From: Streptomyces spectabilis
Lineage (GTDB): Bacteria; Actinomycetota; Actinomycetes; Streptomycetales; Streptomycetaceae
NCBI RefSeq assembly: GCF_008704795.1
Contig: NZ_CP023690.1
Span: 9,372,501 to 9,436,500, forward strand
Length of the DNA: 64,000 nucleotides
Direction of reading: 5' to 3'
Positions 19,771 through 44,890 of this stretch are shown here, one piece after another (the stretch's first letter is position 1; the number at the start of each line of letters is the position of its first letter). A program made the translations under genes and the position numbers. The notes under the pieces were generated by a model. That model did not search any database. It was given only the letters and a program-made list of their open reading frames with translations, and was not told where the DNA came from.

Positions 19771-20238
19771 TCAGGACTTCGGCACCCGGTCCACCGGCAG
19801 GCCGCGCGGCTCCTTGATGCGCTTCATGATGATCTGGGAGTTGACCTCGGTGACCCCGTCCAGGGTCGTGAGGCGTTCGATCCACAGGCGTTCGTAGGCG
19901 GCCAGGTCGGCGACCGCGATGCGCAGCAGGCACCCGGGGCTGCCGAAGAGGCGGTACGCCTCGATCACGTCGGGGATGTCCTGGAGCGCCGCCTCGAACG
20001 CCTCGACCGTCTCCCGGTCCCGGCGCACCTCGATGGAGACCAGGACCTCGAAGCCACGGCCGACCGCCTCCGGGTCCACGATCGCGCGGTAGCCCTGGAT
20101 CACCCCGTCCTGCTCCAGCTGCCGCACCCGCCGCATGCAGGGGGAGGCGCTGAGGCCGATCCGCTGCGCCAGCTCCTGGTTGCTGAGCCGACCGTCCTTC
20201 TGGAGCTCACGCAAGATATCGAGATCAATCCGGTCCAT
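19771..20238 (-). CDS. Lrp/AsnC family transcriptional regulator
   Basis: A 155-residue regulator. The N-terminal winged helix-turn-helix (residues 1-60) shows IDLDILRELQKDGRLSNQELAQRIGLSASPCMRRVRQLE. The C-terminal RAM domain binds amino acids and mediates oligomerisation. It is divergent from asparaginase and aspartase, so asparagine or aspartate is the likely effector. I prefer the ATG at 20238; an upstream ATG at 20268 is possible. An operator-like palindrome overlaps its own start, suggesting autoregulation. Confidence 0.92.
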   Translation of the reverse strand: MDRIDLDILRELQKDGRLSNQELAQRIGLSASPCMRRVRQLEQDGVIQGYRAIVDPEAVGRGFEVLVSIEVRRDRETVEAFEAALQDIPDVIEAYRLFGSPGCLLRIAVADLAAYERLWIERLTTLDGVTEVNSQIIMKRIKEPRGLPVDRVPKS

Positions 20239-20239
20239 G

Positions 20240-20297
20240 GCGCAATTGTGCACCAGCTCCGGCGGCATTCACGGGTTGATATCGCAATCCTATTGCG
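20240..20297. promoter_or_regulatory. AsnC-type operator pair
   Basis: A perfect palindrome CGCAAT-CCT-ATTGCG lies at 20283-20297. A related near-palindrome GCGCAATTGTGC lies at 20240-20251, just ahead of the regulator's ATG. The shared CGCAAT/ATTGCG half-sites suit a multimeric Lrp/AsnC protein controlling both directions. Confidence 0.6.
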
Positions 20298-20426
20298 CAC
20301 GGACTCGCCTATTCTTGCGGCGCGACTGTCCGTGAACCTCGGGCCGTCGGTTCGATGCGGTCGGCGCGGTGCCACGAGCGGCGCCCGGCCGCACTCCCGA
20401 CTTCATGGAGAGGCAGGCCCGCGCCG

Positions 20427-21470
20427 ATGACGCACCTGGCACCCCGGACGGCCCCGCGACGGGTCGTCGTCATCAGCACCGGTGGCACCATCGCCAGCCG
20501 CTGGCAGGGCACCGGGTACGCCGCCGACGCCTCCGGCGGCGAGGTCCTGGCCCAGGCCGCCGTGCCGGACGGCGTCACGGTCGAGGTCGTCGACCTGTTC
20601 AACGTGAACAGCTCCAGCATGACCTCCGCCCGCCAGCTCACGCTGCTGCGCGCGGTGCACGAGGCGCTCGCCGACGCCGGTGTCGCCGGTGTCGTGGTCA
20701 CCCACGGCACCGACACCCTGGAGGAGTCGGCCTTCTTCGTCGACCTGCACCACGACGACCCGCGCCCGGTGGTCTTCACCGGCGCGCAGCGCCCGCTGGG
20801 CGCCGCCGACGGCGACGGTCCGGGCAATGTGTACGACGCCCTGCAAGTCGCCGCGACGGTACGGGACATGGGGGTCCTGGTCGTCTTCGACGGCACGGTG
20901 CACGCGGCGCGCGGCACCGTGAAGACCCGCACCCTGGACCCGCACCCCTTCGCCGACCCGTCCGGGCCGCTCGTGGGGCGGCTGGGCTTCGGGCGCGTGG
21001 ACATCGACCGGCGCCCCGAGCGGCCCGAGGCGCTGCCCGTGCCGACGGGAACGGGCGCGCTGCCGCGCGTCGACATCGTGATGCACCACTGCGACGCCGA
21101 CCCGCTGCTCCTGGACGCCGCGGTCGCGGCCGGGGCCCGGGGCATCGTGCTCGTCGCCACCGGAGCGGGCAACGCGACACCGCAGTTCGCCGAGGCCATC
21201 GCCGCCGCCGTGGACCGGGGCGTCCTGGTGGCCCTCACCACCCGGGTGCACTCGGGGCCGGTCGCCGAGATCTACACCGGCGGCGGCGCGGTCGACCTGG
21301 TCGCCGCGGGCGCGGTCCTCACCGGCACCCTGCGGGCCGGGCAGGCGCGCATCGCCGTCCTCGCCGCGCTGCTCGCGGACGCCGCGCCCCGGCAGCAGGG
21401 CGCGCTGCTCCGCCGGCTCCTGGGCACCCCGGACCTGGGCCAGGGCCAGGAATCCGCCTCGGCCGCCTGA
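20427..21470 (+). CDS. ansA: L-asparaginase
   Basis: A 347-residue amidohydrolase that converts asparagine to aspartate and ammonia. The first catalytic threonine is in ISTGGTIAS; the second motif is [15 protein letters not shown] (Thr-Asp pair). No signal peptide is visible, so it is probably cytoplasmic. The ATG at 20427 is preferred over an earlier in-frame start. It is followed 78 bp later by aspartase, giving a two-step path from asparagine to fumarate and two ammonia, under the divergent AsnC-type regulator. Confidence 0.93.
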
Positions 21471-21547
21471 CCCGCGCCCCCGCCCCCCGGAGCCCCGCGC
21501 TCCGGGACTCCTCCCCGCACCGCCTCGCGTACTCGAAGGACCACCCC

Positions 21548-23056
21548 ATGACCGCCCCCGCCCGGCCGACCGCCGCACCCGCATCCGACCGCCCGCTCGG
21601 CGCGGACGCTCCGCACACCCCGGCCGGGCCCCCGCGCACCCGCCGTGAGCACGACCTGCTCGGTGACCGCGACGTACCCGCCGACGCGTACTGGGGCATC
21701 CACTCGCTGCGCGCCACGGAGAACTTCCCCGTCACGGGCGTCCCGATCTCCGTGTACCCGCAGCTCGTCGACGCGCTTGCCGCCGTCAAGCAGGCCGCGG
21801 CCCGCGCCAACGAGGAACTGGGCCTGCTGCCCGCGGACAAGGCCCGCGCCATCGTGGCCGCCTGCGAGGAGATCCGGGCGGGGCACCTGCACGACCAGTT
21901 CGTCGTGGACGTCATCCAGGGCGGTGCCGGGACCTCCACGAACATGAACGTCAACGAGGTCGTCGCCAACCGCGCCCTCGAACTCCTCGGCCACGCCAAG
22001 GGGGAGTACGCGCACCTGCACCCCAATGAGGACGTCAACCTCAGCCAGTCCACCAACGACGCCTACCCGACCTCCCTGCGCATCGCGACGATCACGGCGG
22101 TGCACGGGCTGCTCCAGGCCATGGCGGTGCTCCAGGACGCGTTCGCCGCCAAGGCCGTGGAGTTCCGGGACGTTCTGAAGATGGGGCGCACCCAGCTCCA
22201 GGACGCCGTGCCCATGACCCTCGGCCAGGAGTTCTCCACGTACGCGGTCATGCTGGAGGAGGACAGGGGTCGACTGTCCGAGGCCGTCGAGCTGATGCAC
22301 GAGATCAACCTCGGCGCCACCGCGATCGGCACCGGCCTCAACACCCCGCCCGGCTACGCGGAGACGGCCCGCCGCCAGCTGTGCGAGATCACCGGGCTGC
22401 CCCTGGTGACCTCCGCGAACCTGGTCGAGGCCACCCAGGACTGCGGCGCGTTCGTGCAGCTCTCCGGCGTCCTCAAGCGCATCGCGGTGAAGCTCTCCAA
22501 GACCTGCAACGACCTGCGGCTGCTCTCCTCGGGGCCGCGCGCGGGGCTCAACGAGATCAATCTGCCCCCGGTCCAGGCCGGTTCGAGCATCATGCCGGGC
22601 AAGGTGAACCCGGTGATCCCCGAGGTCGTCAACCAGGTCGCGTTCGAAGTCATCGGCAACGACCTCACCGTCACGATGGCCGCCGAGGCCGGACAGCTCC
22701 AGCTCAACGCCTTCGAGCCGGTCATCCTGCACGCCCTGGCCAAGAGCATCACGTCCCTGCGGGCGGCCTGTCTGACCCTCGCCGAGCGCTGCGTCGCGGG
22801 GCCGGACGGCGGCATCACCGCGAACACCGAAGCGCTGCGCGCCTCCGTGGAGAACTCCATCGGCCTGGTGACCGCGCTCAACCCGCACATCGGCTACACC
22901 ACGGCCACCGCCATCGCCCAGGAGGCCCTGCGCACCGGCCGCGGCGTCGCCGAACTCACCCTGGAGAAGGGCCTGCTGCCCGCCGAGCGGCTGGCCGAGC
23001 TGCTCACTCCCGAACGCCTGGCGGGCGCGTCCGACCAGCGTGTCCAGTGGTCCTAG
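21548..23056 (+). CDS. aspA: Aspartate ammonia-lyase (aspartase)
   Basis: A 502-residue member of the fumarase/aspartase superfamily that deaminates aspartate to fumarate. The signature [11 protein letters not shown] contains the catalytic serine loop. Other landmarks are [15 protein letters not shown] and [13 protein letters not shown], which bind the substrate carboxylates. A proline-rich N-terminal extension of about 30 residues precedes the catalytic body. AAGGA lies before the ATG at 21548. It works with the adjoining asparaginase. Confidence 0.95.
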
Positions 23057-24069: not shown

Positions 24070-25314
24070 GTGGAGCCATCGACGGACGCGGGCACACCGG
24101 ACCGCCAGGGTGATGTGGCGTCGCGGCCCCTCTCCGCCCGCGACTTCCGCCTCTTCTGGTGGGCCAACGCCGCCGACGCGCTCGGCACCCAGGCGTCCGG
24201 CGTCGTCCTGCCGCTGCTGCTCCTCGCGCTCGGCCACTCCGCGCAGACGGCGGGACTCGTCGCAGGGCTCTCACTGGCCGCCGGGATCCTGCTCGGCCCG
24301 CTCGCCGCGATCCCCGCCGACCGGGGCGCCCGCAAGACGATCATGTTCTGGTCCGCCGCCGTCTCCGCCCTCGCCATGGGCTCCGTCGCCCTGGCCCTCG
24401 CGCTCGGGCGGCTCACGCTCGCGCACCTCCTCGGCGCCGTCCTGGTCGAGCGGTTCGCCACCGCCTGCCACGAGGCGGCCTCGCGCGGCACCGTCGCCCT
24501 GGTCTGCCCGCCCGACGAGCAGCCCCGCGCGGTCGCCCGGCTCGCCGCCGCCGACCAGGGCGCGCTGATCCTCGGCCCGGCGCTCGGCGGCGCCGCCTAC
24601 CAGCTCTCGCGCGCCCTGCCCTTCCTGGCCGACGCCGTCTCGTACGCCGTCGCCGCCGGCTGCGTTCGCGGGATGCGCACCGACCTGAAGGCCCCGGCGG
24701 AGCCGTCGGGAGACGGCCTGCTCCGCGAGGCCGCGGCGGGCCTCCGCCTGGTACGGCGGCAGCCGCTGCTCCGCCTCGTCCTGGTCTGGATCGCCCTCGT
24801 CAACGGCGTCGCCGTCGCGCTCTACTACGCCGCCGTCTTCGCCCTCGAGCGCTCCGGCACGGGCGCGCTTTCGCTCGGCGTGGTCCTCGCGGTCTCCGGC
24901 GGCGCGGGACTCGCCGGTTCGCTCGCCGCGCCGAAGGTCGCGGTCCGCTTCGGTGCCGCCCGGCTCGTCACCGCCGTGACCTGGCTGCTCGTCCCGCTCA
25001 CCGCGGCACTCGCCACCGCGTCCGGACCCTGGGCGTACGGACTGCTGCTCGGCGCGGTGTGCCTGCTCGTCCCACTGGCCGCCGTGGTCCTCCAGGCGCG
25101 GGTGCTGCTGGTGGCCGAGCCCGCGGTGCAGGCGCGCGTCGGCGCGGTCCTCGGCACCGCGTCCGGCGGGGCCGCGGCCCTCGCCCCGGTGCTCGCCGGA
25201 GTGTTCGCGGACCGGGTGGACACCGCCGCGCCCGCCCTCGGCTGCGCCGTCCTGACCGCCCTGCTCGCCGTGCACACCACCCGGCGGGCCGCCCTCACGG
25301 AGGCCGCCGCGTGA
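24070..25314 (+). CDS. MFS transporter of the RiPP locus
   Basis: A 414-residue transporter with about twelve helices, in the enterobactin-exporter-like MFS group (LSARDFRLFWWANAADALGTQASGVVLPLL in pieces; PADRGARKT loop). The GTG at 24070 has GAGGGGG four bases upstream. Its stop overlaps the GTG of the S9 peptidase (GTGA), so it belongs to the RiPP operon and is the likely exporter of the finished peptide. A 20-codon overlapping ATG frame from 24051 is probably chance. Confidence 0.9.
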   Translation: MEPSTDAGTPDRQGDVASRPLSARDFRLFWWANAADALGTQASGVVLPLLLLALGHSAQTAGLVAGLSLAAGILLGPLAAIPADRGARKTIMFWSAAVSALAMGSVALALALGRLTLAHLLGAVLVERFATACHEAASRGTVALVCPPDEQPRAVARLAAADQGALILGPALGGAAYQLSRALPFLADAVSYAVAAGCVRGMRTDLKAPAEPSGDGLLREAAAGLRLVRRQPLLRLVLVWIALVNGVAVALYYAAVFALERSGTGALSLGVVLAVSGGAGLAGSLAAPKVAVRFGAARLVTAVTWLLVPLTAALATASGPWAYGLLLGAVCLLVPLAAVVLQARVLLVAEPAVQARVGAVLGTASGGAAALAPVLAGVFADRVDTAAPALGCAVLTALLAVHTTRRAALTEAAA

Positions 25315-27107
25315 GTCGCTTCCAGGTCTACCGCGCCGCCCTGCCCGAGGTGTGCGCAGCCGATCCGCGCCGGATGGTGTTCACCGCCGACGCCGACGGC
25401 CGCTGCGAGGTCTTCACCTGGGACGTGGCCACCCGCCGCGCGCGCCGGGTCACCGACCGGCCGGGCGGCACCCTGCACGGCGCGATCGACCGGGACGCGC
25501 GGGTCTGGTGGTTCGCCGAGGACGCCCGGGGCGTCGGTCACTGGCGGTTCCAGCCCTTCACCGGCGGTCCCGGCAGGCCCGGACTCGCAGGGGTTCCGGA
25601 CGGCACCGCCCGCGGCCTCGCGGTGACCGGCGGCGCCATCGCCGCCGTCGGCGTCGGCCTGGACGACGGCACCGCCGTCCACATCGGATCCCGGGGCGGC
25701 CCCGGCCGCGAGGTGACGCGCGTCGACGGCCCCGCCGCGCTCGCCGGACTCACCCCGGCGGGCGACCTGCTGGCCCTCACCCGCGCCGCCGACTCGCCCC
25801 GCGCCGTCACAGTCCTCACCCCCGAAGGCTCCGCGGCCGCGGTCCTGCCCGGGGACGGCGCGCACGGCAGGCTGTGGGCCCTCGGCTTCGCGCCGACAGG
25901 ACCGGGCGGCGCCACCCTGCTCCTCGTCCGCGAGCGCGACGACCGCTACCTGCTGGAGACCTGGACTCCCGCCACCGGCACCGTGACGCACGACTGGTGC
26001 GCGTTCGACACCCAGATCACCGCCCGCTGGTACCCCGAAGGCCGCTCCGTCCTCATCCGCCAGGACCGCCACGGGCGCTCCCTGCTGCACCGCGCCCACC
26101 TCGAACGGCGCACCCTCGACGCCGTCCCCGCGCCCCCCGGCACCCTTCTCGACGCCGCCCCGCACCCCGGCGGCGACCTCCACACCCTCTGGACCGACAC
26201 GACGCACCCGCCGCGGATGGCCTCCACCGCCGGCACGCCGCTGCCGCCGCTCGGCACCGTCGAGGGCAGCGTCCCCGGCACCCTGCGCGACATCCGCACG
26301 CCCGGCCCCGACGGCCCGGTGCACACCCTGCTCAGCCTCCCCGAGGACGGTCCCGGCCCGTTCCCCGCGGTCTTCCTGGTGCACGGCGGCCCCGCCGACC
26401 ACGACCGCGACGCCTACGACGGCACCGTGCACTCCCTGGTCGCCTCCGGCTTCGCCGTGGCCCGCGTCAACTACCGCGGCTCCACCGGCTACGGCCCCCG
26501 CTGGCAGCGCGCCTTCCCCGACGGCGTCGGCCACACCCAGGTCGAGGACCTCGCCGCCGTGCGGGCCGACCTCGCCGCGCGCGGCCTGATCCGCCCCGAC
26601 GCCACCGGCCTGTGGGGCACCTCCTGGGGCGGCTACCTCGTCCTGCTCGCCCTCGGCACCCGGCCGGGCCTGTGGCGGGCGGGCGTCGCCGTGAAGCCGG
26701 TCGCCGACTACGCCGCCGCCCACGCCTCGGCGACCCCGGCCCTGCGCGCCCTCGACGAGCGCCTCTTCGGCGGCACCCCCGAGGAGGTGCCCGCACGCTA
26801 CGCGCACAGCTCCCCGATCCGCTACGCCGTCCACGTACGGGATCCGCTCCTGGTCGTCGCCGCCACGCACGACACCAAGTGCCCCGCGGCACAGGTCCGT
26901 TCCTACCTCGGCGCCCTCCACGCCATCGGTGCCCGGCACGAGTCCCTGTGGCTCGACTCCGGACACGACGGCTACGACGGCGGCGACCACGTGGCCGTGC
27001 TGCGCCGCGCGGTGCTCTTCCTCGACCGGGAGCTCCGCGGCACCACCCCACCCAGACGCCCCCGTCCGCCCGGAGGGGGGTCAGCGCACCGCACCGCCCA
27101 TCACTGA
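25311..27107 (+). CDS. S9 family (prolyl oligopeptidase clan) serine peptidase
   Basis: 598 residues in two domains: an N-terminal beta-propeller (about 1-340) that gates access, and a C-terminal alpha/beta-hydrolase. The triad is visible: Ser438 in WGTSWGGY, Asp521 in ATHDTKCP, and His552 in SGHDGYDGG, with HGGP as the oxyanion loop. Members cleave small peptides, often after proline, and some S9A relatives macrocyclise peptides. Position between exporter and precursor gene points to leader removal, and perhaps cyclisation. The closer resemblance is to the S9C/acylaminoacyl branch, so cleavage preference must be tested. Confidence 0.9.
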   Translation: MSRFQVYRAALPEVCAADPRRMVFTADADGRCEVFTWDVATRRARRVTDRPGGTLHGAIDRDARVWWFAEDARGVGHWRFQPFTGGPGRPGLAGVPDGTARGLAVTGGAIAAVGVGLDDGTAVHIGSRGGPGREVTRVDGPAALAGLTPAGDLLALTRAADSPRAVTVLTPEGSAAAVLPGDGAHGRLWALGFAPTGPGGATLLLVRERDDRYLLETWTPATGTVTHDWCAFDTQITARWYPEGRSVLIRQDRHGRSLLHRAHLERRTLDAVPAPPGTLLDAAPHPGGDLHTLWTDTTHPPRMASTAGTPLPPLGTVEGSVPGTLRDIRTPGPDGPVHTLLSLPEDGPGPFPAVFLVHGGPADHDRDAYDGTVHSLVASGFAVARVNYRGSTGYGPRWQRAFPDGVGHTQVEDLAAVRADLAARGLIRPDATGLWGTSWGGYLVLLALGTRPGLWRAGVAVKPVADYAAAHASATPALRALDERLFGGTPEEVPARYAHSSPIRYAVHVRDPLLVVAATHDTKCPAAQVRSYLGALHAIGARHESLWLDSGHDGYDGGDHVAVLRRAVLFLDRELRGTTPPRRPRPPGGGSAHRTAHH

Positions 27108-27120
27108 GAGGAGAGAGCCC

Positions 27121-27249
27121 ATGCAGAAGGACGTCATCCACAACGACCCGCTCGCGGAGGACGAGACGAACCGGAAGCCGAGCATCGGCATCACGGTCAC
27201 CGTCCCGTTCCGCAACGCCGAGGACGGCGAAGAGAGCGTCGAGGACTGA
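27121..27249 (+). CDS. Putative RiPP precursor peptide, 42 aa
   Basis: The ATG at 27121, after GAGAGGAGAGAG, encodes 42 residues. The first twenty (MQKDVIHNDPLAED, then ETNRKP) are polar and acidic like a leader. Residues 21-29 are SIGITVTVP, rich in beta-branched residues, followed by F30-R31-N32 and an acidic tail ending ESVED. Pro20 and Pro29 bound the hydrophobic segment. There is no cysteine, so lanthionine, thiazole or sactionine chemistry is excluded. A stem-loop follows the stop and the radical-SAM gene starts 68 bp on. I recognise no named precursor family; the call rests on context and composition. Confidence 0.75.
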   Translation: MQKDVIHNDPLAEDETNRKPSIGITVTVPFRNAEDGEESVED

Positions 27250-27261
27250 TCCCGAACCGGT

Positions 27262-27290
27262 CGGCCCCCGGGAACACCCCCCGGGGGCCG
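27262..27290 (+). terminator. Stem-loop between precursor and radical-SAM genes
   Basis: CGGCCCCCGGG (27262-27272) pairs with CCCGGGGGCCG (27280-27290), an 11-bp stem with a 7-nt loop. Such hairpins commonly follow RiPP precursor genes and raise precursor transcript relative to the enzymes, by partial termination or 3'-end protection. Confidence 0.65.
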
Positions 27291-27317
27291 GCCGGCCCCA
27301 CCATCGGAGGAGCGCCC

Positions 27318-29240
27318 ATGCGCGTACTGCTGGTCAACATGCCCTGGTCGCCCATCGACCTTCCGTCCCTCGCCCTGGGCATCCTCAAACGGAGCGTGGA
27401 CGAGCGCGTCCCCGGCGCCACCGCCGAGGTCCTGCACGCCAACCTCGCCTTCACCGACTGGATCACCGAGCGCACCGAGTTCACCGGTGACGACTACGAG
27501 TACTACGCGCTCTCCTCGTACTTCATGGGCTGCGGCGACTGGGTCTTCTCCTCCGCCCTGTACGACGACCCGGGCTGGCGGGACGAGGAGTTCACCGCCA
27601 CGATGACCGGCAAGCTGAAGGCCGCGCGGATGAAAATGACGCGCGAACTGCACCGCGTCGTCCCCGAGTTCGTCGAGATGATCGCGCGGCAGATCGTGGC
27701 GAAGGAGCCCGACGTCGTCGGCTTCACCTCCACCTTCCAGCAGAACACCGCCGCGCTCGCCGCCGCCCGCCGGGTCAAGGAACTCGCCCCGCACGTCGTG
27801 ACCGTCCTGGGCGGCGCCAACTGCGACGGCGAGCAGGGCGCCGCCGTGCACCGCAACTTCCCCTTCGTCGACTACGTCGTCCGCGGCGAGGGCGAGGGCG
27901 CCTTCCCGCAGCTGCTCACCGCGCTCGGCGAGGAGTCCGCGGTCGACGACGTGCCCGGCCTGTGCCGCCGCGACGCGACGGGAGTGAGCGTCGCCAACCC
28001 GATGGCCACCCGGCCGCTGCCGCCCGCCGCCATCCTGCCGCCCGACTACAGCGGCTACTTCGAGCGCCTCGCCGCCTCGGTGGCCCGCAACTGGGTGGAG
28101 CCCAAGCTCGTCGTCGAAGGCGCCCGCGGCTGCTGGTGGGGCGAGAAGCACCACTGCACCTTCTGCGGGCTCAACGGCTCGTTCATGGAGTTCCGCTCCA
28201 AGAGCCCGGACACCTTCTACGAAGAGATCATGGACCTGGCCCGCCGCCACCGGGTGCTCGACATGTACGTCGTCGACAACATCCTCGACATGCGCTACCT
28301 GACGACCGTGCTGCCCCGCATCATCGACAGCGGGTACGACCTGCGCCTGCACATCGAGATCAAGGCCAATATGAAGCGCAGCCAGCTGCGCACCCTCGCC
28401 GACGCCGGACTGATCTACGTCCAGCCGGGCATCGAGAGCCTCAACAGCCGCGTCCTCGACCTGATGGACAAGGGCGTCAGCGGCTGCCAGAACGTCCGGA
28501 TGCTGCGCGACGGCGCCGAGACCGGTCTCTCCGTCGCCTGGAACTATCTGCACGGCTTCCCGGGCGAGAGCGCCGAGGACTACGACCCGGTCGTCGCGCA
28601 GATCCCCGCCCTCGAACACCTCGACCCACCGGTCGACCTCTCCGCCCGCATCGCCATCGAGCGCTTCAGCCCCTACTTCGAGCGGCCCGAACTGGGCTTC
28701 ACCGGGCTGCGCCCCGAGGCGCACTACCGCTTCACCTACGACCTGCCCGAAGAAGAGCTGTACGGCATGGCGTACGTCTTCGAGGCCCCGGCCCGAGGCG
28801 TCGGCGAGGAGACCGTCAACGCCCTCAACGCGGCCCTCGGCGACTGGAAGAAGCACCACACGGACGCCCGCCTCACCCACGACGACCACGGCGACCGCAT
28901 CGTCCTGGTCAGTCGCAGGCGCGCCTTCGCCTGGCGCGCCATGGAGCTGAGCGACCCCTTGGAGCTGGCCGTCTTCCGCCTCCTCGACCAGCCGCACGGC
29001 CTCCAGGCCCTCACCCGCAAGGCCGCCGCGCGCGTCCCGGAAGCCACCGTCGACGAGGACCGGCTGCGGCGGCTCCTCGACTCCTGGCTCGCCCTGGGCA
29101 TCGTCTTCGCGGACGCGGGCCAGTACGTCCACATCGCCCCGGCCGCGGTCAACGAGGACCTGCTGCGCCTCGACTTCATGCGGCACGTCCACGCGGAGGA
29201 CGGCGCGGCCGACTCCGCAGCCGTGCCCGAGCCGGCCTGA
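27318..29240 (+). CDS. RiPP maturation B12-binding radical SAM C-methyltransferase
   Basis: 640 residues. The N-terminal part (about 1-220) is a cobalamin-binding Rossmann-like domain (VLLVNMPWSP; VVTVLGGANCDGEQG). The radical SAM domain holds the family-specific cluster motif GCWWGEKHHCTFCGLNG, with Cys272, Cys280 and Cys283. This CxxxxxxxCxxC form with CWWG...CGLN is that of the bacteriocin/RiPP maturation radical SAM family, which methylates unactivated carbons of peptides. The C-terminal region (about 480-640) probably binds the precursor. GGAGGAG precedes the ATG at 27318. The likely targets are beta-carbons of Val, Thr or Ile in the precursor core. Confidence 0.92.
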   Translation: MRVLLVNMPWSPIDLPSLALGILKRSVDERVPGATAEVLHANLAFTDWITERTEFTGDDYEYYALSSYFMGCGDWVFSSALYDDPGWRDEEFTATMTGKLKAARMKMTRELHRVVPEFVEMIARQIVAKEPDVVGFTSTFQQNTAALAAARRVKELAPHVVTVLGGANCDGEQGAAVHRNFPFVDYVVRGEGEGAFPQLLTALGEESAVDDVPGLCRRDATGVSVANPMATRPLPPAAILPPDYSGYFERLAASVARNWVEPKLVVEGARGCWWGEKHHCTFCGLNGSFMEFRSKSPDTFYEEIMDLARRHRVLDMYVVDNILDMRYLTTVLPRIIDSGYDLRLHIEIKANMKRSQLRTLADAGLIYVQPGIESLNSRVLDLMDKGVSGCQNVRMLRDGAETGLSVAWNYLHGFPGESAEDYDPVVAQIPALEHLDPPVDLSARIAIERFSPYFERPELGFTGLRPEAHYRFTYDLPEEELYGMAYVFEAPARGVGEETVNALNAALGDWKKHHTDARLTHDDHGDRIVLVSRRRAFAWRAMELSDPLELAVFRLLDQPHGLQALTRKAAARVPEATVDEDRLRRLLDSWLALGIVFADAGQYVHIAPAAVNEDLLRLDFMRHVHAEDGAADSAAVPEPA

Positions 29241-29308
29241 CCCGCCCGGTCGGCCGCCCGCCCGACCGCCTGCCCGCCCGATCGCTCGACCGTCCGACGA
29301 GGAGCCCG

Positions 29309-29962
29309 ATGACCGCAACGCTCACCTCGCCCACGCTCCTTGCCTGGCGCGACTACGACCCCGCCGCGTGCGCGCTGCCCGGCATGTTCCTCGGCGAGGT
29401 GCCGCTGCCGGGCCCGGCCCGCGGCGAGGCGGCGCGCCTGTGGGAGCTGGGCGCGCGCCGGGTGCGCCTGCCCGCCCCCGTCGACCTGACCGCCGCCACC
29501 GATCCGGTCGCCGCCCTGCACTGGCTCAGCCTGGTGAGGGACCTGACCGCACGCGCCGTCATGGTCGAGTGGGAGCTGCTGCTCGACCCGGACGCGGGGG
29601 ACGCCTTGCGGGTGCTCAGCCACCTCCAGCCGCCCGCCGCGCTCCGGGGCCCCGCCGACGCCGAGGACTCCCTGCGCACCTGGCGGCGCGGCCACTACCT
29701 GTGCAAATGCCTGTGGCGCAAGGGGCCCGGCTTCATCCAGATCCGTGACCGCCGCTGGGGCGAGCTGCGCCGCTTCACCGCCGACGAACCCGAGTACGAG
29801 ACGGCCATCGACCTCCTGGACTACGGCGCCCCCGCCGACACCGTCCCGCAGGCCGCCCTCGACGACTTCCGCGGCGAACAACTCGCCCTGGACGTCGGCT
29901 CGTACGCCTGGTGGATCCCGTACCGCGTCAGCCGCTGGCTCCAGCAGTCGATCGCGATCTGA
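29309..29962 (+). CDS. DUF5825 family protein, RiPP-associated
   Basis: A 217-residue soluble protein matching the DUF5825 pattern, as I recall it, found beside RiPP-type radical SAM methyltransferases. Features include an N-terminal substrate-like region (LPGMFLGEVPLPG), a central RRGHYLCKCLWRKGPGFIQIRD segment that I cite only in part, and a C-terminal aromatic tail (YAWWIPYRVSRWLQQ). It may serve as a precursor-binding or partner protein of the methyltransferase. GAGGAG precedes the ATG at 29309, 68 bp after the radical-SAM stop. Its biochemical role is unknown. Confidence 0.78.
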   Translation: MTATLTSPTLLAWRDYDPAACALPGMFLGEVPLPGPARGEAARLWELGARRVRLPAPVDLTAATDPVAALHWLSLVRDLTARAVMVEWELLLDPDAGDALRVLSHLQPPAALRGPADAEDSLRTWRRGHYLCKCLWRKGPGFIQIRDRRWGELRRFTADEPEYETAIDLLDYGAPADTVPQAALDDFRGEQLALDVGSYAWWIPYRVSRWLQQSIAI

Positions 29963-30080: not shown

Positions 30081-30194
30081 ATGCGCGGAACGTCCATGTC
30101 CCAGACGAAAGGAACAGTCATCAACCTGAAGGACATGACGCTCTGTGCGCACCACGCACCGCACGCTGAACCTGGGAATCCTGGCGCATGTTGA
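30081..30194 (+). CDS. Small ORF overlapping the start of the ribosomal protection gene, 37 aa
   Basis: AAGGAG with seven-base spacing precedes the ATG at 30081. The frame ends at TGA 30192-30194, 50 bases inside the resistance gene, whose GTG at 30145 has no good ribosome site of its own. Translation of this ORF could therefore open or couple initiation of the resistance gene, in the manner of tet(M) leader peptides. Composition (MRGTSMSQTKGTVINLKDM at the start) gives no family. It could instead be an overlooked second peptide. Confidence 0.45.
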   Translation: MRGTSMSQTKGTVINLKDMTLCAHHAPHAEPGNPGAC

Positions 30195-32115
30195 CGCCGG
30201 CAAGACGAGCCTGACCGAGCGGCTCCTGTACGAGGCCGGGGCCATCGACGCCATCGGCAGCGTCGACGCGGGCAGCACCCACACCGACTCGCTCGACCTG
30301 GAGCGCCGCCGCGGCATCACCATCAAGTCGGCGGTCGTGAACTTCCGGCTCGGCAGCGGCTCCTCGGCCGTCTCGGTGAACCTGATCGACACGCCCGGCC
30401 ACCCCGACTTCATCGCCGAGGTGGAGCGGGTCCTCGGCGTGCTCGACGGGGCCGTGCTCGTCGTCTCCGCCGTGGAAGGCGTACAGCCGCAGACGCGCAT
30501 CCTGATGCGGACGCTGAAACGGCTCGGCATCCCGACCCTGCTCTTCATCAACAAGGCCGACCGGCGCGGCGCCGACGACACGCGTGTCCTGCGCGAGGCC
30601 GGGCGCAGGCTCGGCGTGCCCACCGTCGCGATGGGGCGCGTCACCGAAGGCCTCGGCACGCACACGGCGCGCGTCACGGCCTTCACCGAGCGCGATGCCC
30701 CTTTCACGCGCGGGCTCCTCGACGTGCTCACCGCACGGGACGACGCCCTCCTCGCCGCGTACGTGGCCGACGAAGCCTCCGTTCCGTACGAGCGGCTGCA
30801 CGCCGCCCTCGTGGCGCAGACCCGCGAGGGCCGGGTGCATCCGGTGTACGTCGGTTCGGCGATCACCGGCGCGGGCATCCGGGAACTCGTCGCGGGCATC
30901 AAGGAGCTGCTGCCCGCCGAGCACCCCGACACCGAGGGCGCCCTGTCGGGGCGGGTCTTCAAGGTGGAGCGCGGCGAGGGCGGCGAGAAGGTCGCGTACG
31001 CCCGGCTGTTCTCCGGCTCGCTCGCGGTCCGCGAGCGCGTCGCGGTCGGAGACACCAAGGCCAAGGTCACCGACGCGGCCGTCTTCGACCGGGGCGCGCT
31101 GGAGCGCCGGACGGCGGCGCGTGCCGGGGAGATCGCCACGCTGCGCGGGCTCGCGGCGGTCCGCGTCGGCGACGTGATCGGCAGCCCGCTGCTCGGCCGC
31201 CCCTACGACCACGTCTTCGCGCCGCCCTCCCTCGAAACCGTGGTGGTGCCCGCGGACCCGGCCGACCAGGGAGCGCTGCACATGGCCCTGACCCGGCTCG
31301 CCGAGCAGGACCCCCTGATCGGGCTGCGGCAGGACCCGGGCGGCCGGGAGCTGTCCGTCTCCCTCTACGGCGAGGTGCAGAAGGAGGTCCTCGCGGCGAG
31401 CCTGGCCGAACAGCACCTGACGGTCGCGTTCCGGCAGACGACACCGATCTGCGTCGAGCGCGTCACCGGTACCGGCGCGGCCCACGAGATCCTCGACGAG
31501 GAGGACAATCCCTTCCTGGCGACGGTGGGGCTGCGCGTGGAGCCCGGCCGGGCGGGCGACGGCGTCACCTTCCGGCTCGACGTGGAACTCGGCTCGCTGC
31601 CGCCGGCCTACATGCGTGCCGTGGAGGAGACGGTCCGCACCACACTGACGCAGGGGGTGTACGGCTGGCAGGTCCCCGACTGCGTGGTGACGATGACCCA
31701 CTCGGGCTTCTGCAGCATCAGGAGCACGGCGGGCGAGTTCCGCGCGCTGACGCCCCTGGTCCTGATGACCGCGCTGAGCCGGGCCGGGACGGTGGTCCAC
31801 GAGCCGATGCACCGGTTCGTCCTCGAAGTCCCGCAGGAGGCGTACGCGCCGGTGGCGCTCGCCCTGGCCCGCCACCGGGCCGTGCCGGGAACACCCGCGG
31901 CACGCGGTGACGCGTTCGTCGTCGAGGGCCACCTGCCCGCGGACCAGGTGCACGGCCTAGAGCGCGAGCTGCCCGAGCTCACCGGTGGCGAGGGCGTCCT
32001 GGAGACGTCCTTCGGCCACTACCGCGCGACGACGCCCCCGCCGACCCGGGCCCGGACGGACCACAACCCGCTGCACCGGGAGGAGTACCTGCTGCACGCC
32101 CACCGGCGGATGTGA
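30145..32115 (+). CDS. Otr(A)/Tet(M)-type ribosomal protection GTPase
   Basis: A 656-residue EF-G-like GTPase that dislodges tetracyclines from the ribosomal A site. G1 is AHVDAGKTS, G3 is DTPGH, and G4 is NKAD. The C-terminal domain IV and final helix regions are present, and VLVVSAVEGVQPQTRILMRTL is near-identical to the Otr(A) group. The start is GTG at 30145, within the overlapping small ORF. It lies on the same strand directly after the RiPP genes, so it may be self-immunity for that product rather than tetracycline resistance. The family call is firm; the physiological ligand is not. Confidence 0.93.
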   Translation: MRTTHRTLNLGILAHVDAGKTSLTERLLYEAGAIDAIGSVDAGSTHTDSLDLERRRGITIKSAVVNFRLGSGSSAVSVNLIDTPGHPDFIAEVERVLGVLDGAVLVVSAVEGVQPQTRILMRTLKRLGIPTLLFINKADRRGADDTRVLREAGRRLGVPTVAMGRVTEGLGTHTARVTAFTERDAPFTRGLLDVLTARDDALLAAYVADEASVPYERLHAALVAQTREGRVHPVYVGSAITGAGIRELVAGIKELLPAEHPDTEGALSGRVFKVERGEGGEKVAYARLFSGSLAVRERVAVGDTKAKVTDAAVFDRGALERRTAARAGEIATLRGLAAVRVGDVIGSPLLGRPYDHVFAPPSLETVVVPADPADQGALHMALTRLAEQDPLIGLRQDPGGRELSVSLYGEVQKEVLAASLAEQHLTVAFRQTTPICVERVTGTGAAHEILDEEDNPFLATVGLRVEPGRAGDGVTFRLDVELGSLPPAYMRAVEETVRTTLTQGVYGWQVPDCVVTMTHSGFCSIRSTAGEFRALTPLVLMTALSRAGTVVHEPMHRFVLEVPQEAYAPVALALARHRAVPGTPAARGDAFVVEGHLPADQVHGLERELPELTGGEGVLETSFGHYRATTPPPTRARTDHNPLHREEYLLHAHRRM

Positions 32116-41324: not shown

Positions 41325-41659
41325 CGCGCCCCCTGGTCCGGCGTGCGCCGCGCGAGTGCCGGTGCGCCGGGAGGCCGGCGTAGGCGCGTCCCCACGGTCG
41401 GCGAAGGCGGTGGCGGCCGGGCTACGCCAGACGGCAGGGGTGCCGCCCCTGCGCCCGAAGGGGCCCCGTCTACGCGCCCCCTTCGCCGCTCGCGGCGCGC
41501 ACGTCGGCGCGGGCGTGCGGACCCTCGACGCCTCGGACACCCGGAAGGTTCAGCCAACCGACCGTGTCGAGCAACACAATCAGCCGACATGGTCAGGTGA
41601 CCAAGTCGGTTGTATCTTATGGATCAAGCGACCTGCCGTGCGGAACGAAAGGCCCCTCC
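41325..41659. promoter_or_regulatory. CYP102 promoter region with 30-bp palindromic operator
   Basis: AGCCGACATGGTCA (41582-41595) and TGACCAAGTCGGTT (41598-41611) form an inverted repeat, 12 of 14 positions matching, around GG. TATCTT at 41613-41618 is a likely -10 element right beside it, so a bound repressor would block transcription. A further AACCGAC half-site lies at 41556-41562. The rest of the region has no callable gene. Confidence 0.65.
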
Positions 41660-44600
41660 ATGACTCACGCGTCCACCACCGAGCCGACCTCCACGACGAC
41701 GGCACAGGCGATCCCGGAGCGCCCGGCGCTCCCCCTGATCGGTCACGCGCTCGACATCCCGAGCGGGGCCGACGGCCTCGTCCATCTGATGAACGAGGTC
41801 AAGGAGTTGGGCCCGGTGTTCCGGATCCGCGCCTTCGGCTCCGAGACCGTGGTGGTCGGCGGCCTTGACCTGGTGGCCGAGCTGTCGGACGAGACCCGCT
41901 TCCGCAAGAACGTGCACGGGGACCTCGTCGAGATCAGGGAGATCGCGGGGGACGGCCTCTTCACGGCCTTCCACCACGAGCCCAACTGGCAGAAGGCGCA
42001 CGACATCCTGATGCCCGCGTTCTCGCTCGGCGCCATGCGCGGCTACCACGCGACGATGCTCGACGTCGCCCGGTCGCTGATCGCCAAGTGGGACCGCGCG
42101 GCCGGCGCGGACCCGGTGGACGTGCCCGAGGACATGACCCGGCTGACCTTCGACACGATCGGACTCTGCGGATTCGGCTACGACTTCGAGTCGTTCCGGC
42201 GCGACGAGGCGCACCCCTTCGTCGACGCGATGAGCAGGGCGCTCGCCTTCACCCAGACCAAGGGCGAGTCGATCCCGGGCACGGAGGTGTTCCGCTGGAA
42301 GCAGGCGGAGCAGTTCCGCAAGGATGCCGTGCTGATGACGGAGCTGGTCGACGAGGTGATCCGGCAGCGCAGGGCCTCCGGGGACACCGGAACCGACGAC
42401 CTCCTGGGCCGGATGCTGCACACCCGTGACGCGCGGACCGGCGAGCCCCTGGACGACGTGAACATCCGCAACCAGGTGATCACGTTCCTCATCGCCGGGC
42501 ACGAGACCACCAGCGGCGCCCTGTCGTTCGCCCTGTACTACCTGACCAAGCACCCCGAGGTACTGGCCCGCGCACAGGCGGAGGTGGACGCGCTGTGGGG
42601 CGACGCGGACGCGCCCGCGCCCGAGTACGGCGACATCGGCAAGCTGACGTACATCCGTCAGGTGCTCAACGAGAGCCTGCGCCTTTGGCCGACCGCGCCC
42701 GCCTTCGCCGTGGAGCCGATCGAGGACACCGTCATCGGCGGCACGTACCCCGTGCGGCAGGGCGAGAGCCTGCTGGTGCTCACCCCGGCCCTGCACCGCG
42801 ACCCCGCCTGGGGCGAGAACGTCGAGCTGTTCGACCCCGAGCGGTTCACGGCCGAGCGCGAGGCCGCGCGCCCGGTCCACCTCTTCAAGCCCTTCGGCAG
42901 CGGCGAGCGCGCCTGCATCGGACGGCAGTTCGCGCTGCACGAGGCCACGCTGCTCCTCGGCCTGCTCGTCCACCGCTACCGCCTGCTCGACCACACCGAC
43001 TACCGGCTGACGATCAAGCAGTCGCTCACCATCAAGCCCGACGCGTTCACCCTGAAGCTCGCCCGGCGCACCAGCGGTGAGCGACGCCTGCCCGCCGCCG
43101 CGAGCGCGGCGCCCGTGAGCGCGGACCGACCCGCCGCCCGCCGGGCGGCCGCGACCGCGCTCACCCTGCTGCACGGCTCCAACCTGGGCACCTGCGCGGG
43201 ACTCGCCCACGACCTGGCGGCCGACGGCGACGACCACGGGTTCACCACCGCGGTCGCGCCCCTCAACGACCTGGCCGGCAGGCTCAGCCCCGCCGACGGC
43301 CCCGTCGTGATCGTCGCCGCCTCCTACAACGGCCGGCCCACCGACGACGCCGCCGAGTTCGTCACCTGGCTTGAAGGCCTGGAGCCCGGCGCCCTCGACG
43401 GCCTCCAGTACGCCGTCCTCGGCGTCGGCGACCGCAACTGGGCCGCCACCTACCAGCACGTGCCGACCCTCATCGAGCGGTGGCTCACCGCCGCCGGCGC
43501 CACCCCGCTCCTGGAGCGCGGCGCCGCGGACGCCTCCGGTGACTTCGCGGGCGCCGTGGACCGCTGGACCGCGGAGCTGTGGACGGCGCTGCTCGACCGC
43601 TACGGCACCGCCGACGACGAGGCGACGCGCCCCGAGCCCGGCCCCGAGGAGCAGCCGGGCCTGTACGAGCTGGAGGACGCCACCGCGTGCGTCACCGGTG
43701 AACTCGCCGCCCGGCACGGCGTACAGCCCATGGAGGTGCTCGACGCCTACGAACTCGTCGACATGGAGCACGAGCTGGGCCGCTCCAAGCGCTTTCTGAA
43801 GCTGCGGCTGCCCGAAGGCGTCACCTACCGCACCGGCGACCACCTGGCCGTCCTGCCGCGCAACCCCGAGACCCTCGTCCGGCGGGTCGCGGACCGCTTC
43901 GGCCTCGACCTGGAGCGCACCGTGCGGCTGAGCGCCCGCCGCCGCAGCCGCAACACCCTTCCCGTCGACCGGCCGTTGACCCTGCGCCACCTGCTCACCG
44001 ACTTCGTGGAACTCCAGACCGCAGCCACACCCGAGCAGATCGCCGTCCTCGCCGAGCACACCGCCTGCCCGCCCGAGCGCCGCCCCCTGGCCGAACTCGC
44101 CGCGGCGGACGCCGACGCCTTCCACGAGCAGGTCACCGCGCCGGGGCTCAGCGTCCTCGACCTGCTGGAGCGCTTCCGCGCCTGCGAGCTGCCGTTCGCC
44201 CGCTTCCTGGAACTCCTTCCGGTGCTGCGCCCGCGCCACTACTCCATCTCGTCCTCCGCGCAGGCCGCGCCCGGCGAGATCGACCTGATGGTGTCGCTGC
44301 TCGCCGCGCCCCACCGGGCGGGCGAGGGCACGTTCCACGGCATCGCCTCGCACTACGTGCAGGGCGTGCGGGCCGGGGACACCCTCCGGGCCAGGGTGCT
44401 GCCGTGCGGCGAGTCCTTCCGCCTTCCCGACGACGACACGGTGCCGGTCATCCTGGTCAGCGCGGGCACCGGCCTCGCGCCGTTCCGCGGAGCCGTCCTC
44501 GACCGGCTGCACACCGGGTCCACCGGCACGCTCCTGTGCTACTTCGGCTGCGACCACCCGGAGGTCGACTACCTGCACCGCGAGGAGTTCGAGCGGGCCC

Positions 44601-44890
44601 AGACGGCCGGAGCGGTCAGCATGCGGCCCGTCTTCTCCCAGGCCCCCGAGGGCGGCGCCCGCTACGTCCAGGACCGCATCGCCCGGGAGAGCGACGAGGT
44701 GTGGGACGTGCTGCGGGCGGGCGGCCGGGTCCACGTCTGCGGCGACGGCCGCCGGATGGCCCCCGCGGTGCGGGAGGCGTTCATGGCCGTCCACCGCGAG
44801 CACACCGGCGCGGACGACGAGCAGGCGGCCGGCTGGCTGGACGCCCTCGTCGAGTCCGGCCGCTACGTCGAGGACGTCTGGACCGGCTGA
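41660..44890 (+). CDS. Self-sufficient cytochrome P450:NADPH reductase fusion (CYP102, BM3-type)
   Basis: 1076 residues. The heme domain (about 1-470) has AGHETTSG, ESLRLW and FGSGERACIGRQFA with Cys419. A short Ala-rich linker leads to the FMN flavodoxin domain (about 495-640; LTLLHGSNLGTCAGLAHDL in part, ASYNGRP). The FAD/NADPH half (about 670-1076) shows RHYSISSS, SAGTGLAPFRG and a terminal VEDVW. It hydroxylates fatty acids or similar chains using NADPH with no other partner. The ATG at 41660 follows GAAAGG. Expression is probably controlled by a repressor at the upstream palindrome. A large terminator separates it from the MFS gene. Confidence 0.96.
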   Translation: MTHASTTEPTSTTTAQAIPERPALPLIGHALDIPSGADGLVHLMNEVKELGPVFRIRAFGSETVVVGGLDLVAELSDETRFRKNVHGDLVEIREIAGDGLFTAFHHEPNWQKAHDILMPAFSLGAMRGYHATMLDVARSLIAKWDRAAGADPVDVPEDMTRLTFDTIGLCGFGYDFESFRRDEAHPFVDAMSRALAFTQTKGESIPGTEVFRWKQAEQFRKDAVLMTELVDEVIRQRRASGDTGTDDLLGRMLHTRDARTGEPLDDVNIRNQVITFLIAGHETTSGALSFALYYLTKHPEVLARAQAEVDALWGDADAPAPEYGDIGKLTYIRQVLNESLRLWPTAPAFAVEPIEDTVIGGTYPVRQGESLLVLTPALHRDPAWGENVELFDPERFTAEREAARPVHLFKPFGSGERACIGRQFALHEATLLLGLLVHRYRLLDHTDYRLTIKQSLTIKPDAFTLKLARRTSGERRLPAAASAAPVSADRPAARRAAATALTLLHGSNLGTCAGLAHDLAADGDDHGFTTAVAPLNDLAGRLSPADGPVVIVAASYNGRPTDDAAEFVTWLEGLEPGALDGLQYAVLGVGDRNWAATYQHVPTLIERWLTAAGATPLLERGAADASGDFAGAVDRWTAELWTALLDRYGTADDEATRPEPGPEEQPGLYELEDATACVTGELAARHGVQPMEVLDAYELVDMEHELGRSKRFLKLRLPEGVTYRTGDHLAVLPRNPETLVRRVADRFGLDLERTVRLSARRRSRNTLPVDRPLTLRHLLTDFVELQTAATPEQIAVLAEHTACPPERRPLAELAAADADAFHEQVTAPGLSVLDLLERFRACELPFARFLELLPVLRPRHYSISSSAQAAPGEIDLMVSLLAAPHRAGEGTFHGIASHYVQGVRAGDTLRARVLPCGESFRLPDDDTVPVILVSAGTGLAPFRGAVLDRLHTGSTGTLLCYFGCDHPEVDYLHREEFERAQTAGAVSMRPVFSQAPEGGARYVQDRIARESDEVWDVLRAGGRVHVCGDGRRMAPAVREAFMAVHREHTGADDEQAAGWLDALVESGRYVEDVWTG

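What the first reader, a model, noticed from the sequence alone, without database searches (positions are those of the whole stretch)
24070..29962. Compact RiPP locus: proline-bounded core, S9 peptidase and B12 radical-SAM methyltransferase
Seen: exporter, S9 peptidase, 42-aa precursor, radical SAM with CWWG...CGLN cluster motif, DUF5825 protein, all on one strand with overlaps or short gaps. In the precursor, a hydrophobic nonapeptide SIGITVTVP (residues 21-29) is preceded by Pro20 and itself ends in Pro29. Known: prolyl-oligopeptidase macrocyclases of amatoxin biosynthesis cut after a leader proline and close a core that ends in proline, and CWWG-type B12 radical SAM enzymes methylate peptide carbons. 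Inference: the product may be a C-methylated nonapeptide, possibly head-to-tail cyclic, made with amatoxin-like logic in a bacterium. I recognise no described family with this precursor.
Basis: partly seen in the sequence, partly recalled or inferred. Interest (0 to 1): 0.88.

Follow-up and report, generated by a model that had tools for sequence, protein, structure and literature searches.

The report
Clavusporin-type methylated peptide gene cluster
This is a Streptomyces five-gene operon that very probably makes a short, water-repellent peptide carrying extra methyl groups; it appears to belong to a peptide family already described (clavusporins), and the proposed mushroom-toxin-style ring closure is poorly supported.

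Summary
In detail: MFS exporter, S9 peptidase, 42-aa precursor, B12 radical SAM and DUF5825 form one tight operon (24070-29962). The order recurs in 71 of 80 named relatives, and 90 distinct precursor homologues were read in loci with an S9 gene, so the small ORF is real.

The family is not undescribed: citing papers say that a B12-rSAM/DUF5825 pair C-methylates clavusporins and that an S9 peptidase, MpcP, removes their leader. S. clavuligerus has the same operon. The primary paper is not held.

Amatoxin-like cyclisation is poorly supported: the enzyme is acylaminoacyl-peptidase-like, and relatives with the S9 gene replace Pro20 by Val, lack Pro29, or end right after the core. A linear C-methylated peptide, perhaps with its acidic tail, is likelier.

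The parts
24070..25314 (+). MFS exporter (414 aa, GTG start)
   Evidence: PF07690 84.5 bits; a homologue in 74 of 80 named loci
25311..27107 (+). S9 serine peptidase, acylaminoacyl-peptidase-like (598 aa), putative leader peptidase; presumed triad Ser438, Asp521, His552
   Evidence: PF00326 115.7 bits, PF02897 not among the matches at E 0.001; best solved relatives are acylamino-acid-releasing enzymes, E 1.3e-32 over residues 78-573; in 136 aligned sequences, window included, Ser 136, Asp 135, His 134, the rest gaps
27121..27249 (+). RiPP precursor, 42 aa
   Evidence: translation; 90 distinct homologues
27121..27180 (+). leader, residues 1-20, with conserved KD(I/V)IxNDPL and an R-x-P or R-x-V end
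   Evidence: 73 distinct main-type sequences: K3, D4, P10, L11, R18 in 73 of 73; Pro20 in 69, Val in 4
27181..27207 (+). core SIGITVTVP, residues 21-29, alternating beta-branched residues; probable methylation sites (inference)
   Evidence: residue 22 I/V in 72 of 73, 24 and 26 I/V in 73 of 73; Pro29 in 63 of 73
27208..27246 (+). acidic tail FRNAEDGEESVED, residues 30-42
   Evidence: tail net charge -2 to -6 in 73 of 73 distinct main-type precursors
27318..29240 (+). B12-dependent radical SAM C-methyltransferase (TIGR03975), 640 aa
   Evidence: 618 bits; nearest solved chain TokK, E 7.6e-14
28131..28175 (+). cluster motif CWWGEKHHCTFCGLN (C-x7-C-x2-C)
   Evidence: CWWG...C..CGLN-type motif in 194 of 196 rSAM frames; the two misses are shortened frames
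29309..29962 (+). DUF5825 partner protein, 217 aa; homologous over residues 73-205 to residues 393-608 of the rSAM

Best explanation
A clavusporin-type RiPP operon. Shown by sequence: the five genes, their conserved order, and a precursor with a conserved leader, a 9-residue beta-branched core and an acidic tail. Inferred: (1) the rSAM and DUF5825 bind the leader (probably its KDxIxNDPL segment), and the rSAM puts methyl groups from methylcobalamin on unactivated side-chain carbons of the Ile/Val/Thr-rich core. (2) The S9 peptidase then cuts once, after Pro20 (after Val in some relatives), as a hydrolase. (3) The linear product, starting at Ser21 and probably keeping the acidic tail so that it is an amphiphile, leaves through the MFS exporter and works as a surface-active peptide, as the title of the clavusporin paper says for that family. 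DUF5825 is most likely a truncated paralogue of the rSAM's own C-terminal half that lacks the B12 domain and the cluster, and serves as a leader-binding or scaffold subunit.
For: TIGR03975 'RiPP maturation radical SAM C-methyltransferase' at 618 bits. A homologous B12-rSAM/DUF5825 pair C-methylates clavusporins (passages), and MpcP, an S9 POP, is cited for removing their leader. Five-gene order in 71 of 80 named loci and in S. clavuligerus pSCL4 with rSAM 83, DUF5825 71, S9 70, MFS 64% identity and precursor MQKDVIHNDPLAGDEENRKPSVGITITVPFRNAEDADED. Hydrolase rather than cyclase: S9 present where the core is C-terminal (...NRPIVVIIVSS...RSVEVSVSVSVGF) and where Pro29 is absent (12 of 81 main-type). 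Triad intact. DUF5825-rSAM homology: E 1.7e-8; on trimmed alignments E 8e-8, score 62.5 against at most 25.0 in 100 column shuffles, 15.8 with rSAM reversed and 17.2 against S9, each half of DUF5825 scoring on its own in collinear order; no row overlap or motif contamination.
Confidence: 0.86

Rival explanations
1. Amatoxin-like logic: the S9 enzyme cuts after Pro20, then uses the Pro29 acyl-enzyme to join Ser21 to Pro29, giving a head-to-tail cyclic C-methylated nonapeptide and releasing the acidic follower.
For: Pro20 in 69 and Pro29 in 63 of 73 distinct main-type precursors; exactly 9 residues from the junction through Pro in 68 of the 69 R-x-P/R-x-V precursors that keep it; a conserved follower exists in the main type.
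Against: The S9 is acylaminoacyl-peptidase-like with no PF02897 match. Pro20 and Pro29 labels change 7 and 4 times on a quick rSAM tree of 89 rows, all from S9-bearing loci. Relatives L071, L074, L211 have S9 but nothing after the core. MpcP is cited for leader removal.
Confidence: 0.05
2. The S9 enzyme removes the leader, and a second, unlinked protease trims the acidic tail at Pro29, so the mature product is a linear, purely hydrophobic nonapeptide.
For: Sharp boundary between core and tail; Pro29 common (63 of 73); relatives without any tail encode a bare hydrophobic core (L071, L074, L211).
Against: No second protease among the five conserved genes; the tail keeps net charge -2 to -6 in 73 of 73, which suits a surfactant; the GVGVVVYLR clade lacks Pro29.
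Confidence: 0.25
3. The S9 enzyme is a general peptidase that merely sits in the operon; the leader is removed by housekeeping proteases.
For: Pro20 can be Val; many DUF5825/rSAM loci have no such S9 gene (0 of 34 loci whose rSAM is under 50% identical gave a tblastn match to it; other peptidases were not sought).
Against: An S9 match was present in 114 of 114 loci whose intact precursor was found without regard to S9; triad intact; none of the eight candidate precursors read by motif in S9-less loci (L075, L080, two in L081, L185, L199, L200, L201) has the R-x-P junction, though these are also the more distant loci and most S9-less loci gave no candidate; MpcP is cited as leader peptidase.
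Confidence: 0.08

Closest known systems
Clavusporins (mpc genes; [quoted passage not shown] not held, title seen in reference lists of citing papers)
   Same: B12-rSAM + DUF5825 pair and S9/POP leader peptidase; Streptomyces setting (recalled, not seen)
   Different: Nothing shown to differ; direct sequence comparison was not possible
S. clavuligerus pSCL4 locus (NZ_CP016560.1, L168)
   Same: Same five-gene order; precursor identical at 32 of the first 39 positions (counted by eye)
   Different: Core SVGITITVP instead of SIGITVTVP; precursor three residues shorter; no Otr-like gene next to it in the stretch held
Amatoxin/phalloidin POPs and omphalotin macrocyclase (named in PMC12951456, passages; details recalled)
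   Same: S9-family serine peptidase acting on a RiPP near proline
   Different: Those cyclise; here no PF02897 match was found and some relatives have no follower
Flavipeptin FlaP (PMC10885120, passages) and biarylitide ProTM32 (PMC12951456, passages)
   Same: Bacterial S9 enzymes tied to RiPP leader removal; FlaP cuts after a proline
   Different: Different modifying enzymes and precursors
Biphenomycin-type YHxYxY clusters (PMC12257519, passages)
   Same: Include a B12-rSAM + DUF5825 pair
   Different: Those also encode an MNIO and another B12-rSAM; neither is among the five conserved genes here

Membership tests
Clavusporin-type RiPP | B12-rSAM C-methyltransferase next to DUF5825 | tested here: met
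   27318-29962
Clavusporin-type RiPP | S9/POP leader peptidase in the operon (MpcP) | tested here: met
   an S9 enzyme is present (PF00326; triad); the sequence of MpcP itself was not compared and cleavage was not tested
Clavusporin-type RiPP | Precursor homologous to the clavusporin precursor | not testable with these tools
   paper not held; a text search with five precursor fragments was swamped by another term (1,031 papers, 20 listed, none of these with a fragment)
Clavusporin-type RiPP | Product C-methylated and surface-active | not testable with these tools
   needs LC-MS/NMR and a surface-tension assay
POPB/amatoxin-type macrocyclase system | Prolyl oligopeptidase with the N-terminal family PF02897 (accession recalled) | tested here: not met
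   no match at E 0.001 for the window's S9; best solved relatives are acylamino-acid-releasing enzymes, a chain named prolyl oligopeptidase follows at E 1.1e-10
POPB/amatoxin-type macrocyclase system | Core bounded by a leader Pro and a terminal Pro | tested here: inconclusive
   met in the window; in 73 distinct relatives (window included) Val at 20 in 4 and no Pro at 29 in 10, one of which has a Pro two residues on; further departures in the wider set
POPB/amatoxin-type macrocyclase system | Head-to-tail cyclic product | not testable with these tools
   needs LC-MS
RiPP recognition element (for the DUF5825 C-terminal domain) | PqqD-like winged-helix fold | tested here: inconclusive
Radical SAM enzyme (for DUF5825) | Cysteine cluster motif and B12 domain | tested here: not met
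   homology covers only rSAM residues 393-608, beyond the motif at 272-286; only PF19142 found in the window's DUF5825 protein

The most novel reading that the evidence does not exclude
DUF5825 is a split-off, cluster-less duplicate of the C-terminal half of its partner B12-rSAM, so the methyltransferase is a two-subunit enzyme in which the truncated paralogue carries a second leader-binding (RRE-like) domain and sets where or how often the core is methylated.
Probability: 0.4. Interest if true: 0.55.

Novelty: new member of a known kind. Interest (0 to 1): 0.36.

Why it matters
It settles a lead that looked like a bacterial amatoxin pathway as, most likely, a common and already described Streptomyces peptide family (DUF5825 in 70 of 295 sampled genomes of the genus, 69 over the family cut-off). 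It also gives a 90-sequence map of a precursor that databases seem largely to miss (7 protein clusters in a word-based search), and a testable idea about what DUF5825 is: a piece of the methyltransferase itself, which could explain why the pair occurs together.

Tried and rejected
Amatoxin-like cyclisation: held unlikely for the reasons given under rivals. Otr(A)-like ribosome protection gene (30145-32115) as part of the system: rejected; of the 80 named loci only L088 gave a match to it in the DNA held. Four unnamed loci (L191, L192, L194, L220) also gave a match and were not examined further. Family match of the precursor: none in NCBIfam up to E 10 in the right frame; its Pfam scan was made only in a wrong frame. 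Papers: the term clavusporin is in 3 held papers; searches brought no further paper on it, and the two papers were seen as a listing only. A Foldseek 'pdb' search of the DUF5825 model and a structure prediction of the rSAM (to see whether its own C-terminal domain is RRE-like) could not be run because the machine was full. Profile comparison of the narrow alignments A1 and A2 was too weak and was followed by one with more divergent rows. In that one, rows were dropped if the locus lacked either tblastn match or if lengths lay outside 520-760 (rSAM) or 130-300 (DUF5825) residues. The list shows no further family that I would name an RRE besides TbiB1 and ThcOx (both labels recalled); that proves nothing either way.
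Full report
OBSERVATION. The window lies at 9,372,501-9,436,500 of a 9.81-Mb one-contig genome. The named relatives of its rSAM are Streptomyces (80 of 80 kept). The exporter and peptidase overlap by four bases; the gaps S9-precursor, precursor-rSAM and rSAM-DUF5825 are 13, 68 and 68 bases. The 42 residues and the nonapeptide SIGITVTVP at 21-29 are as described.

IS THE SMALL ORF REAL. A scan of named genomes with the rSAM found 517 relatives and kept the best 80. In 71 of these 80 the five genes stand in the same order and strand; the nine others lack one to three of them in the DNA held (L092, L101, L105, L108, L124, L126, L132, L152, L163). Across 136 loci (L032-L167, partly the same contigs twice) a precursor homologue was found by tblastn in 115, one of them running into masked bases; the 114 intact ones give 74 distinct sequences, and all 114 loci have an S9 match. 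Adding 24 precursors that I picked from S9-bearing loci gave 138 loci and 90 distinct precursors. The ORF is therefore conserved beyond chance. A word-based search of a protein database of 5.8 billion sequences gave only 7 clusters, three of them named 'hypothetical protein' and the rest unnamed, and it is not in the gene table of the S. clavuligerus record (a table known to be incomplete), so it seems often missed by annotation.

WHAT THE PRECURSOR LOOKS LIKE. Over 73 distinct main-type sequences, window included and start codon set to M, the leader is MQKD(I/V)IxNDPLxxDEENRKP; K3, D4, P10, L11 and R18 are invariant. The core is (G/S)(I/V)(G/S)(I/V)T(I/V)T(V/I)P: residues 24 and 26 are I or V in 73 of 73. 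The tail carries a net charge of -2 to -6 in 73 of 73. Pro20 is present in 69 of 73 (Val in 4) and Pro29 in 63 of 73 (Arg in 10 by plain position; one of these has a Pro two residues on).

TEST OF THE PRO-CORE-PRO IDEA. Among 91 distinct precursors from S9-bearing loci (window included) the junction is R-x-P in 74, N-R-P in 2, R-x-V in 7 and R-G-A-V in 8. Of the 81 with R-x-P or R-x-V, 69 have a proline at the core end, 68 of them after exactly nine residues. On a FastTree tree of 89 rSAM proteins the Pro20 label needs 7 changes and the Pro29 label 4. This is a quick tree with 28 of 86 inner branches open and long-branch warnings, and the labels for distant precursors are my assignment, so the counts are rough. 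Loci L071 and L074 encode ...NRPIIVIIVSS and ...NRPIVVIIVSS, and L211 ...RSVEVSVSVSVGF, each ending right after the core, with an S9 match 47-50% identical to the window's. A macrocyclase of the amatoxin type expels a follower (recalled); here there is none. So the peptidase most simply hydrolyses once between leader and core. Against this reading stand the frequent Pro29, the near-constant spacing and the presence of both prolines in the window, which leave cyclisation possible for its own clade; I give it 5%.

THE S9 ENZYME. The presumed catalytic serine, aspartate and histidine (438, 521, 552) are kept in 136, 135 and 134 of 136 aligned sequences, window included, the rest being gaps (frames under 450 residues were left out). 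The closest solved enzymes are acylamino-acid-releasing enzymes (E 1.3e-32, residues 78-573), and a chain named prolyl oligopeptidase follows far behind (7c72, E 1.1e-10, residues 331-537; 86 sequences matched, 60 shown). The prolyl-oligopeptidase N-terminal family PF02897 (accession recalled) is not among the matches at E 0.001.

THE KNOWN FAMILY. [quoted passage not shown] PMC12026744 (passages) gives the same with the reference. PMC12951456 (passages) says that MpcP, a POP, is involved in removing the clavusporin leader. [quoted passage not shown] that the peptides lower surface tension, help aerial growth and are widespread in actinomycetes is recalled. S. clavuligerus plasmids carry the rSAM at 83% identity (16 records); on pSCL4 it stands in the same operon with identities of 83 (rSAM), 71 (DUF5825), 70 (S9) and 64% (MFS) and an unlisted precursor MQKDVIHNDPLAGDEENRKPSVGITITVPFRNAEDADED. 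That the name clavusporin refers to this species is a guess. On this basis I file the locus as a new member of a described kind. DUF5825 was found in 70 of 295 genomes of the genus (69 over the cut-off), 89 of 394 of the family, 16 of 394 of the class (15 over it) and 6 of 396 of the phylum (4 over it), the window's own genome included.

MECHANISM. Shown: genes, order, conservation, triad, cluster motif (194 of 196). Inferred from the families: leader binding by rSAM/DUF5825; methylation of core side chains; cleavage after residue 20; export by MFS; surfactant role. A 22-residue product would have a hydrophobic head (GRAVY 1.47) and a tail of charge about -5, fitting a surfactant, but where the product ends is not known.

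VERDICT. Observation confirmed. Interpretation partly supported: C-methylated RiPP very probably yes; amatoxin-like cyclisation poorly supported; undescribed family no.

Noticed in passing
window 30145-32115 (+), with a 37-aa ORF at 30081-30194: An Otr(A)-like ribosome protection protein just downstream (694 bits to the Otr(A) model, below its curated cut-off of 900), overlapped by a short ORF that differs by one residue in L088 and might be a leader ORF.
   Followed up: partly
G000:C1:7420059-7432571 (L083): A second DUF5825 + TIGR03975-like pair in the same genome (rSAM 56%, DUF5825 38% identical), with no S9 match and no NDP-type precursor found in the 1.5 kb upstream; its substrate is unknown.
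   Followed up: partly
L080, L081, L199, L200, L201: S9-less DUF5825/rSAM loci with very short candidate precursors (26-32 aa) that begin with a K-x-V-V-x-x-DPQ-like leader and end in a beta-branched core at the C-terminus.
   Followed up: partly
L073, L079, L184, L187-L193: A subfamily with precursors MKRRS(V/I)xxDPI...DRGAV and a long Pro/Lys-rich tail, S9 about 40-44% identical to the window's.
   Followed up: partly
window 41564-44890 (+): A cytochrome P450 fused to flavodoxin/reductase domains (PF00067, PF00258, PF00667, PF00175).
   Followed up: no
window 19771-23056: AsnC-type regulator beside an asparaginase and a lyase with a fumarase C-terminal domain, perhaps an asparagine/aspartate-use group upstream of the RiPP genes.
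   Followed up: no
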